Assembly: GCF_003095655.1 (NCBI RefSeq)
Contig: NZ_CP029151.1
Span: forward strand, 453,501 to 517,500
Direction: 5' to 3'
Origin: Dokdonia sp. Dokd-P16
GTDB lineage: Bacteria; Bacteroidota; Bacteroidia; Flavobacteriales; Flavobacteriaceae
DNA: 64,000 nt
Shown: positions 1,777 through 20,908 of the stretch, piece after piece
Layout: every line of letters starts with the position of its first letter
Position numbering within the stretch: position 1 is the first letter of the stretch
Made by a program: the position numbers and the translations under genes
The notes under the pieces: generated by a model
Told to the model about the DNA's origin: nothing
Database searches by the model: none
What the model saw: only the letters and a program-made list of their open reading frames with translations

Positions 1777-1794
1777 ACGCTTTCGCGAAAGCGT
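1777..1794. repeat. Dispersed palindrome copy 1 (intergenic)
   Basis: Perfect 18-bp palindrome ACGCTTTCGCGAAAGCGT, placed in the 48-base gap between the two transketolase genes, i.e. inside an operon rather than at its end. Confidence 0.95.
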
Positions 1795-3783: not shown

Positions 3784-3801
3784 ACGCTTTCGCGAAAGCG
3801 T
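3784..3801. repeat. Dispersed palindrome copy 2 (intergenic)
   Basis: ACGCTTTCGCGAAAGCGT, between the FKBP gene stop and its terminator. Confidence 0.95.
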
Positions 3802-6999: not shown

Positions 7000-7000
7000 C

Positions 7001-11033: not shown

Positions 11034-12026
11034 ATGCAAATAACCTCATTAGTTACCGGTGGCGCTGGCTTTATAGGAAGCCACGTTGCTCGTCATTTAC
11101 TAGATTTAAAACATCAAGTCGTAATACTTGATGATCTCTCTGGTGGTTTTGAAGATAACATTCCAGAAGGCGCAACATTTATCAATGGCTCTATCACAGA
11201 TGTCTCACTTATTGACGCTATATTTAATCAATATAATTTTGACTACGTGTATCACCTAGCTGCATATGCTGCTGAAGGATTAAGCCATTTCATACGTAAG
11301 TTCAACTACGAGAATAACCTCATTGGGAGCATCAACCTCATTAATGCTGCGGTTAATCACAACATAAAGAAGTTCATCTTTACAAGCTCTATTGCTGTAT
11401 ATGGAACTCAAGAATTACCGCTCAAGGAATCTCAAAAACCACAACCAGAAGATCCTTATGGTATTGCAAAATATGCGGTAGAGATGGATCTGGATAATGC
11501 ACATAAAATGTTTGGGCTAGACTATATTATCTTTCGCCCGCACAATGTGTATGGGCCTGGACAAAATATCGGAGATAAGTATCGCAATGTGGTGGGTATA
11601 TTTATGAATCAGATATTAAAGGACGAACCGCTTACCATCTTTGGCGACGGAAATCAAACCCGTGCTTTTACCTACATAGATGATGTCGCACCTTATATTG
11701 CGGCTAGTTACGCTTTCGCGAAAGCGGATAACCAAATCTTTAACATAGGCGCAGATACCGAAAACACGGTAAACAAACTAGCTAAAGAAGTAGGACTTGC
11801 TATGAAAAAAGAGGTGACCATCAACCACCTAGAGCAACGCGAGGAAGTGATACACGCCTATGCAGACCACTCAAAATTTACAGAAATCTTTACTCCAAAA
11901 CCAGCCACAACACTTGCACAAGGACTACGAGAAACCGCAAAATGGGTGACTGAACACGGCGCGAGAGAAAGTAGTACTTTTGACCCTATAGAAATCACAA
12001 AAAACCTACCAAAATCGTGGCAGTAA
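11034..12026 (+). CDS. NAD-dependent sugar epimerase/dehydratase
   Basis: A 330-aa extended short-chain dehydrogenase. Rossmann motif VTGGAGFIGSHVA is at residues 7-19, and the catalytic YGIAK (Tyr-x3-Lys) follows a TSSIAVYG strand. The substrate-domain motif RPHNVYGPGQN is typical of UDP-hexose 4-epimerases and relatives. The gene overlaps the next glycosyltransferase by 10 bases, suggesting that its nucleotide sugar feeds that transferase for a surface glycan. The exact sugar cannot be told. A palindrome copy encodes its SYAFAKAD segment. Confidence 0.85.
   Translation: MQITSLVTGGAGFIGSHVARHLLDLKHQVVILDDLSGGFEDNIPEGATFINGSITDVSLIDAIFNQYNFDYVYHLAAYAAEGLSHFIRKFNYENNLIGSINLINAAVNHNIKKFIFTSSIAVYGTQELPLKESQKPQPEDPYGIAKYAVEMDLDNAHKMFGLDYIIFRPHNVYGPGQNIGDKYRNVVGIFMNQILKDEPLTIFGDGNQTRAFTYIDDVAPYIAASYAFAKADNQIFNIGADTENTVNKLAKEVGLAMKKEVTINHLEQREEVIHAYADHSKFTEIFTPKPATTLAQGLRETAKWVTEHGARESSTFDPIEITKNLPKSWQ
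11710..11726. repeat. Dispersed palindrome copy 5 (inside epimerase gene)
   Basis: ACGCTTTCGCGAAAGCG, read in frame as YAFAKA. Confidence 0.92.
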
Positions 12027-14447: not shown

Positions 14448-15623
14448 TTAAAATGCCTCTGCGATTCCTAAGTAAAACTCACTAGAGCCTCTACCAAAAC
14501 CTACATCAAAACGAAGATTGAGACGCTCTTCCTTATCTATCATAAAACGAAGACCACCTCCATAGGTAGGCTTTAAGTTCTTGAACTGAAAATCGCTCAC
14601 ATCATTATAGATATCACCTCCACCGGCAAATAATACAGCGCCAAAACGAGAGTTCTTAAACGTCTTTCTATATTCTACCTGGCTTGCAAGTAAATCTCTA
14701 CCTACATAACGGCCTTCTCTATAACCACGCATAATCTCACTACCTCCAAGAAAAGAAAACTCAGAAAACGGTAAGTCACCACGAGTAAATCTTCCCACCA
14801 TCTGGAACGCAAGAATATCATCCTTATCTGCAAATGGCTTTGTGTAATGTCTTAAATCAAAACGTGTCAAATCAAAGTTATGTGTACCTCCAAGCGCCTC
14901 AAAATATTGACCTCTCGTGGTCTCTAGGTACCATCCATTTTGAGCATTCAGCACATTGTTTCTGTTATCATACAGTGCTGCAACCTCAACACCTAGCGAT
15001 GTAGATCCATCATAACCCGTAGGTCTAGTTTGATCTATTAGTCCGCCCTCTTCTATATCAACAGAGTAAATATGATTAAATCGCACACCAGCACCCACAA
15101 AAAGGTAACGTGTAAAAGCCTGTTTTAGAAAGATAGGCTCCACTAGCAACTGGTAATAATTATACTCCTCCTCTGCACTTTCTGGTGAGTTTGTGCCAAA
15201 ACCATAAAACAGTCTTGGGTAATTTTGAAAAAGGATATTACCCTCTATCACCCACTTCTCTTGGTTTGTAAAAATCTCAAATCCAGAATAAACAAAAAAC
15301 TGACTATTGAGTGTGTACTGCAGCGTGATAGGCATATTAGACACACGCGTCTCCTCCCCACTACCGTTAAATTTAAACAGATACTTTGCTCCCGTTCCAA
15401 AGGCAAAATTTGTCTCCGGGCTGTAGCTCATTACTGGTGCCGCTATAAACTTAGATGCATATAAAGTACTATCTTTTGCAACAGCCTTGTGGTTTGGGTG
15501 AAACGTAAAGAACTCTTTAATCTTTTCAAAATCCTGTGCTTGTGCCGTCTGTGTATTACCTACCGTAAAAAGTACGATGGCAATAAGATATATCAATGTT
15601 TGGGGGAAGTAGTTTACTCTCAA
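14448..15623 (-). CDS. Omp85/surface-antigen-like outer-membrane barrel
   Basis: A 391-aa protein with a signal peptide (cleavage after NTQTAQAQ, about residue 30) and no POTRA domains. The barrel carries the Omp85 signature FLGGSEIMRGYREGRYVG, and AALYDNRNNVLNAQNGWYLE resembles the D15 strand motif. The short N-terminal part before the barrel is specific to Bacteroidetes D15-only proteins. It could be a porin, a surface-display factor or a lipid-handling barrel. It lies 87 bases upstream of the M24 lipoprotein on the same strand. Confidence 0.82.
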   Translation of the reverse strand: MRVNYFPQTLIYLIAIVLFTVGNTQTAQAQDFEKIKEFFTFHPNHKAVAKDSTLYASKFIAAPVMSYSPETNFAFGTGAKYLFKFNGSGEETRVSNMPITLQYTLNSQFFVYSGFEIFTNQEKWVIEGNILFQNYPRLFYGFGTNSPESAEEEYNYYQLLVEPIFLKQAFTRYLFVGAGVRFNHIYSVDIEEGGLIDQTRPTGYDGSTSLGVEVAALYDNRNNVLNAQNGWYLETTRGQYFEALGGTHNFDLTRFDLRHYTKPFADKDDILAFQMVGRFTRGDLPFSEFSFLGGSEIMRGYREGRYVGRDLLASQVEYRKTFKNSRFGAVLFAGGGDIYNDVSDFQFKNLKPTYGGGLRFMIDKEERLNLRFDVGFGRGSSEFYLGIAEAF

Positions 15624-15747
15624 AATGCTATTTTTGGATAAAGATACTGTAGACGGGGGTTTTAGCCCGTGACATGCTTTAGTTTTTGTGATAACATTAG
15701 TATCTCACACACCATTTATACACCATACATCCCATCAAGCAGCCATT

Positions 15748-16215
15748 ATGCTCAATATTGTACTCATACATCCAGAAATCCCAAACAACACAGGTAACAT
15801 AGGTAGGCTTGCCCTCGGTTCTGGCTGCAAGTTGCACCTTGTAAAACCCTTTGGTTTTGAGATAGACGACACCCGCCTTAAACGCGCAGGTCTTGACTAC
15901 TGGCAGCATCTAGACGTACAGTATTATGATAGTACAGAAGACTTTTTTAAGAAGAACGCTTTCGCGAAAATGGTATTTCTTTCCAGTCACGGTACAAAAT
16001 CACATTACGATATCCCTTTTGAAGAAGAGGTATTTCTCGTTTTTGGGAAAGAGTCCAAAGGACTCCCTATTGAAATCACTGAAAAATATCCCAACCAACT
16101 TTATAAGATCCCATTATTTAGCGAGCACATCAGAAGTTTAAATCTTGCAAATGCAGTGGGAATAGTGGCTTATGAGGGGATAAGACAGTTAACTTTTAAA
16201 AAAAACACTGACTAA
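15748..16215 (+). CDS. trmL: tRNA (cytidine/uridine 2'-O)-methyltransferase
   Basis: A 155-aa SPOUT enzyme that methylates the wobble nucleotide of tRNA-Leu. I use the ATG at 15748, which starts MLNIVLIHPEIPNNTGNIGR, the family's normal N-terminus; the frame extends to 15688 but the extra 20 residues are not conserved in type. Motif 2/3 residues FGKESKGLP and the knot motif IPLFSEHIRSLNLANAVGIV are present. The 3' half from 15956 is repeated, about 85% identical by eye, at 18235-18476, so the present 3' half may not be the original one. Confidence 0.93.
   Translation: MLNIVLIHPEIPNNTGNIGRLALGSGCKLHLVKPFGFEIDDTRLKRAGLDYWQHLDVQYYDSTEDFFKKNAFAKMVFLSSHGTKSHYDIPFEEEVFLVFGKESKGLPIEITEKYPNQLYKIPLFSEHIRSLNLANAVGIVAYEGIRQLTFKKNTD
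15956..15970. repeat. Dispersed palindrome copy 6 (inside trmL)
   Basis: ACGCTTTCGCGAAAA (one arm incomplete), read as NAFAKM. It marks the left end of the segment duplicated at 18235. Confidence 0.85.
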
Positions 16216-16276
16216 CGACCGAAAGTTTTATTAATTAAAAAAGCACCTTGCTTATAATTTTAATTCATAGAAGGTT

Positions 16277-16293
16277 ACGCTTTCGCGAAAGCG
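16277..16293. repeat. Dispersed palindrome copy 7 (intergenic)
   Basis: ACGCTTTCGCGAAAGCG, 61 bases after trmL. Confidence 0.93.
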
Positions 16294-16440
16294 ATAACTA
16301 ACAACATATATTTCTAGTAGTTTCAAGAATACTTCTCAAGAAAGCAACTAGTACAGTCATCATTTCAAATCATTAAACGCTTTGTTTTTTTGAGAAAACT
16401 GATTTTAATGCAAAAGTTATGGATACTCAGAAAAAATAGT

Positions 16441-16476
16441 AAAAAAAAATTGCGTTCCATAACAGAACGCAATTTT
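16441..16476 (-). terminator. Terminator of the spondin-like lipoprotein gene
   Basis: A 12-bp stem AAAATTGCGTTC/GAACGCAATTTT (16446-16457, 16465-16476), preceded on the plus strand by an A run that becomes the T run of the minus-strand transcript. Confidence 0.85.
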
Positions 16477-16502
16477 CGAACAAATCAAACTAAACCAAAC
16501 AA

Positions 16503-17882
16503 TTAATTTATTAATGCTACTGTAACTTCAATTAAGTTATAACCTCCTCTTTCATCTAAGTACTGAGTAACTCCTGCAGGGGAGCTTATTATACCTTTAC
16601 CAAACTGTACATCATCTAGTGCTCTTACTCTTCTCACAGTTGTATCTGCATCATCTGCCACAGCAACATTGCCACCCATAGGTTGCCCATTACCTTGACC
16701 TACAATTTGATCAACTTCTGTACCTGCATCATATAAATAATTCTTGCTTATATCAAAAGAGCTTTTAGGCGTTCCGTCTTCATTAAAAAGGGTAATACCA
16801 GCTTGATTGTTTGAAATAAACCAATCATTTGAAGAAATAAGCATTGTTGCAAAGTTAAGTCGCTGCCCAGGAGCTGCTTCAATTTCTATTACCATAGATT
16901 CTCCAGGAGTAGCAGGTGTAGTAGTGCGCATGGCAGTAACATTATCCATTGCATTTAAGTAATTAAAAGCAATTTCATTAGATCCATCTTCTGCAAGCTC
17001 CTCTAAGCCATTATCTGTTGTTATAGCTTCTCCATTTGTGAATAAAGGTGTCTGTTCTCCATCATGCACATAAGCAACAGCAGGAGATAATACGGAGTAA
17101 GAAGATGATAATCTTAAAGGAGCACCAGTGCTACCCACCTCTGTAAACCATTCATATATTGCTGCAGGAGAGCCATCTTCTGCAAGACCTTCTAGACCAT
17201 TATTGAGAAGTGGTTCATTTGCAACAAATAGTGCATTGTCTTGCGTATGTATCACCAAGATACCAGGGGTAATAAATCCAGGATTATGGAGTGCTTCTCT
17301 ATTTGCCTTTGTAATGGTAAGAGTAAACTCCTTTGAAGAAGGGTCATACGCTAGATTTGCCGTTAGGTAGTTACGTATATTGCGTCCTGTGTTTCTTACG
17401 TTATTATTATCATCTGCAGGACCTGAGTTTGGCTCGCTTTGATTTGGTGCGGTAAACATGGTATTAGGAAAATCTGTAAGAAAATCTTCCTCTTCCTCAC
17501 TTCCTGCATCCCAAACTATAATTTGATCTGAGATATCTCCAGTAAGTGGCACCATGTTATCCCATAATTTAATGCCCGTGCTAGCAGGAGCAAAAAACCA
17601 GTCATTACTTTGAGCAAACATATTTGCAAAGCTCAAGTACGTTCCTTTAGGTGCTTTAAATGTAGTTACATAGGTCTGCCCTGTTGTAGTTAAAGGCGCA
17701 TCTCCTATAGTGTCTGCACTTAAGAAATTAATAGCATTACGCAATGTAATTCTAAAGGTACTAGTACTCACCGCGGTTTCTACAGTAGGAATTGATGTTG
17801 CTTCAACGGTTTCCTCATCTGATGAGCAAGATCCTAAAATTGCCATTCCAGCAATAGCTAAAGATAAAATTGATTTTTTCAT
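16503..17882 (-). CDS. Lipoprotein with two spondin-like domains
   Basis: A 459-aa lipoprotein (MKKSILSLAIAGMAILGSC, lipid on Cys19, then acidic SSDEE). Two halves repeat each other: GTYLSFANMFAQSNDWFFAP with a WDAGSEEEEDF segment about 35 residues on, and QRLNFATMLISSNDWFIS with YDAGTEVDQ. The SNDWF motif and the acidic loop match the spondin_N domain found in Bacteroidetes surface proteins. A repeated LEELAEDGS/LEGLAEDGS motif lies between them. The function is unknown; adhesion or matrix binding is a guess. It sits between trmL and a displaced 3' fragment of trmL. Confidence 0.78.
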   Translation of the reverse strand: MKKSILSLAIAGMAILGSCSSDEETVEATSIPTVETAVSTSTFRITLRNAINFLSADTIGDAPLTTTGQTYVTTFKAPKGTYLSFANMFAQSNDWFFAPASTGIKLWDNMVPLTGDISDQIIVWDAGSEEEEDFLTDFPNTMFTAPNQSEPNSGPADDNNNVRNTGRNIRNYLTANLAYDPSSKEFTLTITKANREALHNPGFITPGILVIHTQDNALFVANEPLLNNGLEGLAEDGSPAAIYEWFTEVGSTGAPLRLSSSYSVLSPAVAYVHDGEQTPLFTNGEAITTDNGLEELAEDGSNEIAFNYLNAMDNVTAMRTTTPATPGESMVIEIEAAPGQRLNFATMLISSNDWFISNNQAGITLFNEDGTPKSSFDISKNYLYDAGTEVDQIVGQGNGQPMGGNVAVADDADTTVRRVRALDDVQFGKGIISSPAGVTQYLDERGGYNLIEVTVALIN

Positions 17883-17923
17883 TTTTTAAATATTTATGTA
17901 ATTGTTTACGTTTAATAATGGCA

Positions 17924-17955
17924 CAAAGATGCACCTGCATGGAACGTTTTTACAA
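17924..17955 (-). promoter_or_regulatory. Promoter of the spondin-like lipoprotein gene
   Basis: On the minus strand: TTG (17953-17955), a 21-base spacer and CATCTTTG (17924-17931), one mismatch from TAnnTTTG; about 40 bases before the start codon. Confidence 0.6.
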
Positions 17956-18185
17956 TTAAAAAGAGATGAGCGGGAAATTAGAACGCTAAAAAGGAAAAAA
18001 TCAATAAATAAATTCAATATCCTTAAAATCAATGTTTTACATACAAATAAGCTGATGAAAAGGAAAATATAACGTTAAAAAGGAATATTAAAGGTTCATG
18101 CTGAGCGTGTTACTTTCAAAGCAACGTAGAATCTTTATGTATAGATAGATTGCATAAACCTTGTAGTTCTCATTGATATTATCAA
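17956..18185. other. AT-rich intergenic stretch with two short direct repeats
   Basis: No gene seen. AACGCTAAAAAGGAA (17982-17996) and AACGTTAAAAAGGAA (18071-18085) form a 15-base direct repeat with one mismatch, about 90 bases apart. It could be a regulator site or chance. Confidence 0.4.
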
Positions 18186-18476
18186 ATGCCTATACATGTA
18201 ATTATAATAGTAACTTTCATGTTTTTTAAAGAGAACGCTTTCGCGAAAATGATATTTCTTTCCAGTCACGGCACAAAATCACATTATAACATTCCTTTTG
18301 AGGATGATCTATTTCTAATCTTTGGAAAAGAATCTAAAGGACTCCCAAAAGAAATCACCGAAAAACACCCCGACCAACTTTATAAAATCCCATTATTTAA
18401 TGAACACATCAGAAGCTTAAATCTTGCAAATGCCGTGGGAATTGTGGCTTATGAGGGGATAAGGCAGTTGGGGTAA
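18186..18476 (+). pseudogene. trmL 3'-half remnant
   Basis: From 18235 the frame reads NAFAKMIFLSSHGTKSHYNI, FGKESKGLPKEITEKHP and IPLFNEHIRSLNLANAVGIV, matching residues ~70-150 of the intact TrmL 2.3 kb upstream. The N-terminal half with the first conserved region (HPEIPNNTGNIGR) is missing; the first ~16 residues of the open frame are unrelated. A truncated knot half should not work alone, so this is a partial gene. DNA identity to trmL is high but not perfect (several synonymous changes), so it is not a very recent copy. Confidence 0.85.
18235..18249. repeat. Dispersed palindrome copy 8 (in trmL remnant)
   Basis: ACGCTTTCGCGAAAA, same position as copy 6 in trmL, at the left edge of the duplication. 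Confidence 0.85.
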
Positions 18477-18488
18477 TAAATTTACAAG

Positions 18489-18899
18489 ATGAAAAAAGAA
18501 CACAAACTCATTTTAGACATATTATCAAGCTATCTTGAAAGATATCCAGATCAACGATTTGGTCAAGCCATATTTAATCCTGGTATTAATGAATTCATTA
18601 AAAACAACTCATCACGACCAACTTATAATTTAAGGGATATATATAATGATGAAGATTCCGTTATAATAAAACGTATAGAAAACCAACTAGAGTGGTTCAA
18701 TTTACAAAAAAAGGTAAATGAAGGAATTTCTAACATTGAAGGTTTATCTTCTATGACAGTCAATGAGAGATTGTTTCGAACAGGTCTATTAGAGCAGTTT
18801 GATATATTTAAAATATCTAGTAAAAATTATGCAAAATATATCCTAGAATCTCTTCATGTAGATTCTGACTCTATAAAAAAGATGATAAATTCAAAATAA
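18489..18899 (+). CDS. Hypothetical protein
   Basis: A 136-aa protein without signal peptide or membrane segment. The N-terminal half (ILDILSSYLERYPDQRFGQA, ... LRDIYNDEDSVIIKRI) resembles a type of short protein common in Bacteroidetes accessory DNA whose function I do not know. The C-terminal half (VNEGISNIEGLSSMTVNERL) is helical. It starts 12 bases after the trmL remnant and ends 4 bases before the convergent membrane-protein gene. Codon use is more AT-rich than its neighbours', which hints at acquired DNA. Confidence 0.6.
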   Translation: MKKEHKLILDILSSYLERYPDQRFGQAIFNPGINEFIKNNSSRPTYNLRDIYNDEDSVIIKRIENQLEWFNLQKKVNEGISNIEGLSSMTVNERLFRTGLLEQFDIFKISSKNYAKYILESLHVDSDSIKKMINSK

Positions 18900-18903
18900 A
18901 TAA

Positions 18904-19305
18904 TTATCCCAGATATTTTCTCACTTTAACCCAAGATAAGTATATACCAAGAAAGAAACCCAAAGGAACAATTACACCAAAACAAACGTCATACTCACCA
19001 ATTTGAAAAGCGTTATGAAGCAATAAAATGCACATAACAATTAAAAGGATTGATCCAAAAATCATAAAAAACCAAATAATTGAGGTTACGGCGTATTTCT
19101 CAAAATCATTTTTAAATGGCAGTGACATTATTGAGATAAATGCAAAAAATCCAAACAGTATGTGATATAACAAATTGATTAATATCATAAACTGAAAACG
19201 AGCTATTAAACTCTCCTCACTCGAAAATAAAATCGAAAGCAAAGAAAGAATAAGATTCAAAACACCAAATCCCAAATAGTATTTTTTGATAGCTTCTTCT
19301 CTCAT
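18904..19305 (-). CDS. Hypothetical small membrane protein
   Basis: A 133-aa protein with four predicted membrane helices (about residues 10-27, 36-60, 73-98 and 105-127) and no recognisable motif. It ends in a basic tail, WVKVRKYLG. It starts 7 bases after bshC on the same strand, so it may be co-transcribed with it. I do not recognise the family. Confidence 0.6.
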   Translation of the reverse strand: MREEAIKKYYLGFGVLNLILSLLSILFSSEESLIARFQFMILINLLYHILFGFFAFISIMSLPFKNDFEKYAVTSIIWFFMIFGSILLIVMCILLLHNAFQIGEYDVCFGVIVPLGFFLGIYLSWVKVRKYLG

Positions 19306-19312
19306 CTATCCC

Positions 19313-20908
19313 CTACAAAGTAACCACCGTAAACTCTCCTCCTAATGGCTCAAGAGCATTTACTAGTTCAGGGATTAATTGCTCGCCAAATTCTAGATAA
19401 AACTGTGAGAAGTTGGTGTTTCTTTCTTGCAGGCTTTGCATTGGGAATACTTCGTTTTGTAAATCTACTAGACGCTGTACGTGATCACTTAGCTTACGTT
19501 TTTGTGCGCGCAGCAATCTACTTTCTAAGTTTTCTAAACCTTTGAGTTGTTTTACCTCTTGTGCTTTTACGGCTCCTATAAAACTAGCGTCTGTCTCTTC
19601 GGCTAGTAAGTGCATTGCTTTAAACTGCTCTCTTAAAAAGCTGCGTTGTGCAGAGAAGTCTATCTCTATATTTGAGATGGCACGCACCTTTCGGTTAATG
19701 AGTTCGTTTTGTTTTAGAAACAAATTTGGCAACGACACGCCTAGATTTTCAGCCTTTGTACGTTGCTTTTCGGTACGTATTAATGCCGAGTTACGAAGCA
19801 ATAATGCCGGAAATGGAACTCCCACTTCATCAAAATATGTTTTGAGCTGGAACCAATACGCCAGCTCTCCGCCTCCACCTACATAGCAGAGATTCGGTAA
19901 AATCACTTCTTGAAAAAGTGGTCTCAGCAAGGCGTTAGGCGAGAACCGTTCTGGGTGGTTAGCAAGCTCGTCGAGTATCTCATTTTCGCGAAAGCGGATA
20001 TCTGTATCATTTACCACATACATATCATCCACTTTGATAATACGCTCACGTATGCCCTCTTTTATGTAAAACAAGTTTATCTCACGAGGGTGTACTTGCT
20101 CTGCATACCCTAGCGTAGTGAGTTGCTCGGTTTGCTCTGTCACCTTTGCGTGCGACACGCCCTCAAACAATTCTCGTTGTACATAAGGAGCAAATAGCTC
20201 TTTGAGTCCCGCATCATTCCCGTCTACAATGACAAGGCCGTACTCACCAAAAAGCTCGTTACCCAGATAGCGCGTTGCATCTGCCAGGTTATCGTGATTG
20301 AGATACGCATCACTAAAAAGTTTTGAGAGGTACTCTGCATTTCTTGAAGTCCCTAGCTGTGTTTTAAATAATGCTAATACTTCCGCCAGTCCTTCGGTTG
20401 AGAGTTCGCCTACGGCGCCACCGTCCTCACGATTCCAATGTACTTTTTTGCCTTGGAAATTGAAGTAGTTAATCTCGTCAAAATCGTGATCCTCTGTCGC
20501 CATCCAGTAAATAGGTACATAATTGCGGTCTGGATCTTTCTCTTTAAGCTCCTTGCAGAGATTAATGACAGAGATAATTTTATATAAAAAGTAGAGCGGC
20601 CCGGTAAATAAATTGAGCTGGTGCCCTGTGGTGATGGTAAAGGTATTTTCGCTGGCTAGATGCTCTAAGTTGAGCTGCGTCTCGGCAGAGGTGTTTGTAT
20701 TTTTATATTGCGCGATGAGGGAATCATATAAACGCTTTCGCGAAAGCGGACTAAAAAATTGCCCCTTCTCTTCTGCCTGTTTGATAAGATTATCTGCTGT
20801 AGGAAATCTGTGATAAAAGGGCTTAAGTGCTTCTTCTTGATCTAGATAGTTTGTGATAAGATTAGAAAAATACCCAGTTTCACGGTACGGCAGACAGTCA
20901 GTTGGCAT
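19313..20908 (-). CDS. bshC: Bacillithiol biosynthesis cysteine-adding enzyme
   Basis: A 531-aa cytoplasmic ligase that adds cysteine to glucosaminyl-malate, the last step of bacillithiol synthesis. Diagnostic segments are TITTGHQLNLFTGPLYFLYKI, YWMATEDHDFDEIN and LCYVGGGGELAYWFQLK, with a coiled-coil region near residues 400-480. The length is normal for the family. bshA and bshB are not in this window. Two palindrome copies lie in the gene (FSPLSRKRLY and DIRFRENEIL). Confidence 0.93.
   Translation of the reverse strand: MPTDCLPYRETGYFSNLITNYLDQEEALKPFYHRFPTADNLIKQAEEKGQFFSPLSRKRLYDSLIAQYKNTNTSAETQLNLEHLASENTFTITTGHQLNLFTGPLYFLYKIISVINLCKELKEKDPDRNYVPIYWMATEDHDFDEINYFNFQGKKVHWNREDGGAVGELSTEGLAEVLALFKTQLGTSRNAEYLSKLFSDAYLNHDNLADATRYLGNELFGEYGLVIVDGNDAGLKELFAPYVQRELFEGVSHAKVTEQTEQLTTLGYAEQVHPREINLFYIKEGIRERIIKVDDMYVVNDTDIRFRENEILDELANHPERFSPNALLRPLFQEVILPNLCYVGGGGELAYWFQLKTYFDEVGVPFPALLLRNSALIRTEKQRTKAENLGVSLPNLFLKQNELINRKVRAISNIEIDFSAQRSFLREQFKAMHLLAEETDASFIGAVKAQEVKQLKGLENLESRLLRAQKRKLSDHVQRLVDLQNEVFPMQSLQERNTNFSQFYLEFGEQLIPELVNALEPLGGEFTVVTL
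19983..19996. repeat. Dispersed palindrome copy 9 (inside bshC)
   Basis: TTTTCGCGAAAGCG, read on the minus strand as RFRE. Confidence 0.85.
20732..20748. repeat. Dispersed palindrome copy 10 (inside bshC)
   Basis: ACGCTTTCGCGAAAGCG, read on the minus strand as LSRKR. Confidence 0.92.

What the first reader, a model, noticed from the sequence alone, without database searches (positions are those of the whole stretch)
15956..18476. trmL 3' half duplicated around a lipoprotein gene
trmL 15956-16190 reappears at 18235-18476, ~85% identical by eye, beginning at the same palindrome arm. Between them sits one complete gene on the other strand (the spondin-like lipoprotein with its promoter and terminator). 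Either a piece of foreign trmL with the lipoprotein gene replaced the original 3' end (leaving the old end behind), or an element inserted in trmL and rebuilt the gene, as site-specific integration does. The palindrome may be the crossing point. No integrase is visible.
Basis: partly seen in the sequence, partly recalled or inferred. Interest (0 to 1): 0.62.

Follow-up and report, generated by a model that had tools for sequence, protein, structure and literature searches.

The report
Foreign trmL end displaced the original
In this marine bacterium the back half of a tRNA-methylating enzyme gene appears to have been swapped for a relative's version that came in together with a surface-lipoprotein gene, and the original back half was left behind as a fragment: a clear example of a known kind of gene import.

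Summary
15943-16190 (the end of an intact trmL-like gene) recurs at 18222-18469, ungapped, 87% identical, around one spondin-domain lipoprotein gene on the other strand. The genus is Dokdonia (inferred through a matched contig). Of 17 genus genomes with a trmL match, this one included, only this one has the second piece. Against five sister genomes the intact gene's 5' half is 97-98% identical, its 3' half only 86-88%, and the displaced piece 91-93%, close to the downstream flank (93-94%). So the intact gene is a chimera with a foreign 3' end, and the displaced piece is the native end, probably decaying. Another Dokdonia carries a 77% identical lipoprotein in the same orientation in the same trmL-bshC gap, which points to a donor chromosome of the genus rather than a mobile element; the donor itself was not found. 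No tyrosine integrase lies within 265 kb. Best mechanism: homologous recombination in trmL on one side, illegitimate joining on the other; integration of an element (as e14 in icd) is the rival. The kind of event is known. A palindrome lies inside the crossover interval, but it is a genus-wide repeat (about 780 exact half-sites per strand); its role is only weakly suggested.

The parts
15748..15955 (+). native 5' half of the TrmL-like gene
   Evidence: 201-203 of 208 bases identical to five sister genomes
15943..15992 (+). interval in which native sequence passes into foreign sequence; holds the half-palindrome at 15957-15972
   Evidence: copies 1 and 2 share states at offsets 227 and 236, copy 1 departs from copy 2 and the sisters from offset 245; change-point estimate offset 227, 208-236 within 2 lnL, counting those two shared states
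15993..16215 (+). foreign 3' end of the TrmL-like gene (copy 1)
   Evidence: last 235 compared bases agree with sisters at 203-206 only, mostly synonymous differences
16278..16293 (.). perfect 16-bp palindrome inside the insert
16503..17882 (-). cargo: spondin-domain lipoprotein gene, 459 aa
   Evidence: NF038123 184.8 bits; 77% identical gene in the same gap of G009; absent at E 1e-3 from 14 of 17 other genus genomes
18091..18221 (.). right end of the insert without match in other genus genomes
   Evidence: similarity to G009 stops at 18090
18222..18476 (+). displaced native 3' end of trmL (copy 2, relict)
   Evidence: 215-219 of 235 bases identical to sisters; joined to the native 5' part it gives an open frame 417-420 of 443 identical to sisters
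18489..19305 (.). older variable cargo of the trmL-bshC gap: ORF 18489-18899 (+) and ORF 18904-19305 (-)
   Evidence: 18888-19320 is 95% identical to G012; the first ORF has one weak match in 58 other genomes

Best explanation
DNA from another, unsampled Dokdonia whose trmL-bshC gap carries the lipoprotein gene entered the cell. Inside trmL, between about 15943 and 15992, it recombined homologously, so the gene now has a native 5' part and a foreign 3' part and stays intact. The other end of the donor piece, about 2.2-2.3 kb further on, was joined without long homology to the recipient's own trmL near codon 66 (18221/18222), so the native 3' end was pushed downstream as a relict instead of being replaced. 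SHOWN by comparison: the chimera, the relict, the single-copy state of relatives, related cargo in the same gap of another Dokdonia, no tyrosine integrase nearby. INFERRED: the donor, the one-sided route (homology-facilitated illegitimate recombination, or one-sided repair of a break in trmL that copied donor DNA and rejoined), and that the relict is dead.
For: Chimera with an abrupt switch: 4 private changes in the first 245 sites, 22 in the next 198; Fisher p 2.2e-5, 0 of 500 permutations; sisters 1-5 and 1-3. Displaced copy at the local native level. Sisters single-copy. Relaxed change in the displaced copy: 5-6 non-synonymous to 9-12 synonymous codons, against 0-2 to 6-10 between sisters. 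Same cargo in the same gap and orientation in G009, without a trmL remnant. Gap content turns over across the genus. No Phage_integrase nearer than 265 kb. A ComEC-family gene is present.
Against: Donor not found. Both junctions lie within about 50 bp of one point of the native gene, which one-sided recombination does not predict and a single-site insertion does. The 3'-half tree is weak and its AU tests reject nothing. At 8 of 33 sites where the copies differ the sisters side with the gene's tail. No Ku for end joining. Competence of this organism is not shown.
Confidence: 0.6

Rival explanations
1. A small circular or integrative element that carried a trmL 3' end and the lipoprotein integrated at one site in trmL and rebuilt the gene, as e14 does in icd; its recombinase acted in trans or was lost.
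For: Both junctions lie near one point; the gene is rebuilt; the displaced end keeps about 27-50 nt of near-identity at its start, as an att core would. Anatomy as in e14/icd (PMC6379469, passages).
Against: No tyrosine integrase within 265 kb; the insert has one sizeable ORF; no relative of the cargo in phages or viral contigs, only three partial 35-37% matches in plasmids; the cargo sits in the same gap in G009 without any trmL remnant. Serine recombinases and transposases were not searched for genome-wide.
Confidence: 0.25
2. Reversed roles: the tail in the gene is native but fast-evolving or recombined earlier, and copy 2 is the import.
For: Copy 1 is continuous with the native 5' half; genome-wide G000-G008 identity over 400 kb is only 88%, so 86-88% is not extreme in itself.
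Against: Abrupt switch within the gene; copy 2 closer to all five sisters and at the level of its downstream flank; 20 against 8 sites; the sequence soon after copy 2 is shared with G012.
Confidence: 0.06
3. Old tandem duplication within the genome.
For: Two ungapped copies, 87% identical.
Against: Only one of 17 genus genomes has it; copy 1's tail differs from sisters by 12-14% while sisters differ by 3-5% there, and its 5' half does not.
Confidence: 0.03

Closest known systems
Homology-facilitated illegitimate recombination; 3'-end displacement proposed for Vibrio cholerae T6SS modules and Rhs tips (PMC5361080, passages read)
   Same: One homologous anchor in a gene, new downstream cargo, old 3' end pushed downstream.
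   Different: Here the gene is a housekeeping tRNA-methyltransferase-like gene and the cargo a lipoprotein; the illegitimate junction lies almost opposite the homologous one, so nothing measurable was lost.
e14 prophage in E. coli icd (PMC6379469, passages read)
   Same: Insertion provides an alternative 3' end to a housekeeping gene and leaves the original end as a duplicate fragment.
   Different: e14 integration is site-specific; no integrase, phage genes or proven att sites here, and the insert is only about 2.2-2.3 kb.
Integrase-poor recombination hotspots between core genes (PMC5635113, passages read)
   Same: The trmL-bshC gap holds different genes in related genomes, with no recognised mobile-element gene among the window's ORFs there.
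   Different: Their usual mechanism, double crossover in both flanking core genes, leaves no relict; this event did.

Membership tests
Homology-facilitated illegitimate recombination | homologous crossover at one end of the incoming DNA | tested here: met
   abrupt switch from native to foreign within trmL, window 15943-15992
Homology-facilitated illegitimate recombination | non-homologous or microhomology join at the other end | tested here: inconclusive
   abrupt junction at 18221/18222, similarity to the G009 version ends at 18090; donor sequence unknown, a T run at the junction
Homology-facilitated illegitimate recombination | route of DNA entry (transformation or conjugation) | not testable with these tools
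   a ComEC-family gene is present; other competence genes not searched
Site-specific integrative element (e14 type) | recombinase gene in the element | tested here: not met
   one sizeable ORF, a lipoprotein; nearest Phage_integrase more than 265 kb away
Site-specific integrative element (e14 type) | gene rebuilt by the element, old end duplicated at its far side | tested here: met
Site-specific integrative element (e14 type) | same element at the same att site elsewhere | tested here: not met
   17 genus genomes with a trmL match, one with a second piece; the cargo of G009 has no trmL remnant
Integrase-poor recombination hotspot | different genes between the same two core genes in related genomes | tested here: met
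   trmL-bshC gap in the sisters and other genus genomes
Integrase-poor recombination hotspot | raised homologous recombination in the flanking core genes | not tested
   only this trmL was examined for mosaicism

The most novel reading that the evidence does not exclude
The 16-bp palindrome in the crossover interval is not passive. Dokdonia and two other genus groups (g11, one member matched to Nonlabens, and g210) carry it in hundreds of copies, and segments that differ between species tend to end near it. It could be a recombination or DNA-exchange signal, in the manner of an uptake sequence, that seeds imports such as this chimeric trmL.
Probability: 0.08. Interest if true: 0.75.

Novelty: new member of a known kind. 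Interest (0 to 1): 0.33.

Why it matters
It is a readable fossil of how a small cargo gene enters a chromosome without visible mobile-element machinery: the crossover is mapped to about 50 bp, the displaced native end is still there, and a relative carries related cargo in the same gap. It also warns that the relict may be annotated as a short methyltransferase. If the palindrome took part, a very abundant repeat of these marine bacteria, for which my few searches of the held library found no description, would become directly testable.

Tried and rejected
Tree of the 3' halves (18 rows, 198 columns): copy 1 falls with genomes outside the five sisters (85/93), but 10 of 15 inner forks are open and four AU tests gave p 0.26-0.33; I do not lean on it.

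Donor search: copy 1's tail plus downstream DNA against 397 family genomes (only two of them of this genus, this one included) gave 109 with a match; apart from short hits, the best to the trmL tail outside this genome was G011 at 79%. In the genus search (18 genomes) the five sisters match the whole gene at 91-92%, the next at 79%. The insert's right end (17990-18240) matched only G009 (83% over 51 bases) and G014 (79% over 52).

Cargo on mobile elements: phages none; plasmids three partial matches of 35-37%; viral contigs none. Rfam, 15600-19400, gathering threshold: none. tRNAs: four in the window, none in the insert, nearest ending at 7000.

Palindrome as breakpoint, first 400 kb of G000, G006, G008: against plain shifts an excess (G000-G008: 8 and 10 of 88 segment ends within 25 bp, expected 1.2 and 1.3). 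With a null matched for distance to gene ends, 1.2-3.5 fold within 25 bp, p 0.0002-0.50; at 50 bp one of six comparisons was below its null (2 against 3.2). With palindromes masked, 1.9-3.1 fold within 25 bp, p 0.0035-0.14. Second 400 kb with the rule fixed beforehand (50 bp, matched null; note): 1.3-2.0 fold in all 12 comparisons, p 0.03-0.33, three of 12 under 0.05. The comparisons share genomes, and alignment ends may be drawn to a shared or masked motif, so I rate this suggestive only.

Literature, held open-access library only: string TTTCGCGAAA in 10 papers, seen as listing, none about flavobacteria by title; 'Dokdonia' with 'palindrom' 5 papers, listing only; 'DNA uptake sequence', 'Flavobacteri', 'palindrom' together none; 'Dokdonia', 'natural transformation', 'recombination' together none.

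Full report
What is there. The window is G000:C1:453501-517500 of a single contig of 3.62 Mb. The genus is inferred to be Dokdonia: G009, placed in the same genus, has a contig C73 of 31414 bases that matches CALKZS010000073.1, titled uncultured Dokdonia, in length and lipoprotein match. A TrmL-like gene (15748-16215, +) is followed by a spondin-domain lipoprotein gene (16503-17882, -), a second copy of the trmL 3' end (18222-18476, +), two small ORFs and bshC (19313-20908, -). The two trmL ends are 87% identical over 248 ungapped nt.

Is it private to this genome? Of 18 genus genomes, 17 have a trmL match, and only G000 has a second partial copy; the other extra hits are of at most 66 bases and mostly overlap the palindrome. 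In a protein search of 59 genomes, G000 included, no other genome has a second match better than E 7.6e-9 (30% identity; presumably other SpoU-type methylases). In the five sisters (G003, G006, G008, G012, G016) the trmL-bshC gap holds small ORFs directly after the trmL stop that differ in whole or part from genome to genome, and in G007 and G010 the two genes abut or overlap by a few bases.

Which end is native? Against the five sisters the gene's first 208 bases agree at 201-203 positions; of the last 235 compared, only 203-206 agree, while the displaced copy agrees at 215-219. The same sisters are 91-97% identical over the 1.3 kb upstream and 93-94% over the aligned downstream flank. So the displaced copy sits near the local native level and the gene's own tail is the outlier. 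The switch is abrupt: 4 private changes in the first 245 sites and 22 in the next 198 (Fisher p 2.2e-5; 0 of 500 permutations reach the change-point score), whereas each sister has 1-5 and 1-3. At the 33 sites where the copies differ, all five sisters side with the displaced copy at 20, with the gene's tail at 8, and are mixed at 5 (sign test p 0.036). Joining native 5' part and displaced end gives one open frame, 417-420 of 443 identical to the sisters, against 405-409 for the present gene. A caution: average identity of the aligned part of 400 kb is 93.5% to G006 but 88% to G008, so 86-88% is not extreme by itself; the contrast within the gene and with copy 2 carries the argument. The tree of the 3' halves is compatible but weak.

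State of each end. The tail now in the gene differs from the sisters by 18-24 synonymous and 5-7 non-synonymous codons, as a gene that stayed under selection elsewhere. The displaced copy differs by 9-12 and 5-6, whereas sisters differ among themselves by 6-10 and 0-2. Four of its private changes (offsets 225, 261, 291, 373) are at sites where copy 1, all five sisters and 9 or 10 of 10 further genus genomes agree. This fits a recent relict; it has no stop or frameshift yet and lacks the first 65 residues. That it does nothing is inferred.

Where the crossover lies. The copies share two states absent from the sisters (offsets 227, 236), and copy 1 departs from copy 2 and all sisters from offset 245 on. 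The change-point estimate, which counts those two shared states, is offset 227 (208-236 within 2 lnL). I therefore place the left crossover between about 15943 and 15992. The right junction is at 18221/18222. Native sequence is thus split at nearly one point, with nothing measurable lost.

Where the insert came from. G009 has a 77% identical lipoprotein in the same orientation in its own trmL-bshC gap; DNA similarity covers 16444-18090 at 74%. There no trmL remnant was found beside it, and a 654-codon ORF lies between trmL and the lipoprotein gene. A scan of GTDB species gave 20 loci with relatives of the lipoprotein, one of them G009's; in the other 19 no trmL or bshC match (E 1e-5) lies in the fetched DNA, up to 10 kb on each side. 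At E 1e-3 it is missing from all five sisters and from 14 of the 17 other genus genomes in all. A donor of this genus with trmL-cargo-bshC is the simplest source; it was not found.

How it most likely happened. A homologous switch in trmL on one side and an abrupt join on the other is the form of homology-facilitated illegitimate recombination, proposed for displaced effector ends in Vibrio cholerae (PMC5361080, passages) and for part of the variable segments in E. coli (PMC2884548, passages). The genome has a ComEC-family gene and no Ku by family search. The near-coincidence of the two junctions would also fit repair of a break in trmL that copied donor DNA from one end and rejoined, or integration of a circle. 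e14 in icd gives the same anatomy by site-specific integration (PMC6379469, passages), but here the nearest Phage_integrase is more than 265 kb away and no phage or viral-contig relative of the cargo was found. Hotspots that lack integrases and turn over by recombination in flanking core genes are described (PMC5635113, passages). I give the one-sided route 0.6 and an integrating element 0.25.

The palindrome. CGCTTTCGCGAAAGCG with up to three mismatches occurs 26 times in the window against 0.15 expected. The 13-mer CGCTTTCGCGAAA occurs 779 and 769 times on the two strands of this genome and 251-876 per strand over the 18 genus genomes, its reversed control 0-2. About half the sites lie in genes by a crude gene call. 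One imperfect site lies in the crossover interval; at the window's density a 50-bp interval would touch one about 3% of the time (my arithmetic), and this was noticed after the fact. Ends of variable segments lie near it about 1.2-3.5 times as often as matched points, with mixed significance, one comparison in the other direction, and possible alignment bias. That keeps the idea alive but does not show it.

Verdict. The finding is real and its main point resolved: a chimeric trmL-like gene with a foreign 3' end, and the native end displaced behind a lipoprotein gene. The kind of event is known; the example is clean. The mechanism stays open between one-sided recombination and integration.

Noticed in passing
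window 1778-1793, 3785-3800, 11711-11726, 16278-16293 and others: A 16-bp palindrome CGCTTTCGCGAAAGCG in hundreds of copies in all 18 Dokdonia-group genomes, three g11 (Nonlabens-like) and one g210 genome, at most 20 half-sites per strand in the rest of 397 family genomes. In the first 400 kb of G000 (105 sites) its left flank is T/G-rich and its right flank A/C-rich.
   Followed up: partly
G118, G127, G141, G254 (four other genera), places: The few palindrome half-sites there are partly clustered and each genome has a pair 933 bp apart; this may be one segment that moved between genera.
   Followed up: no
trmL-bshC gap in L071-L075 (G016, G006, G008, G003, G012): Small ORFs turn over right behind the trmL stop; G012 seems, by eye, to keep only the tail of an ORF that G006, G008 and G016 have whole.
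   Followed up: no
G009:C73, between 6482 and 8703 (L070): A 654-codon ORF, by eye a secreted glycoside hydrolase with a sorting-type C-terminus, lies between trmL and the lipoprotein gene. No family search was made.
   Followed up: no
window 18489-18899: ORF of 136 aa without Pfam or NCBIfam match and with one weak match (39% over 57 aa) in 58 other genomes.
   Followed up: partly
window 18097-18145: By eye a stretch like the short interspersed repeats of Bacteroidota lies in the unmatched right end of the insert; its core CATGCTGAGCG occurs once on the plus strand of 400 kb of this genome, so a repeat was not confirmed.
   Followed up: partly
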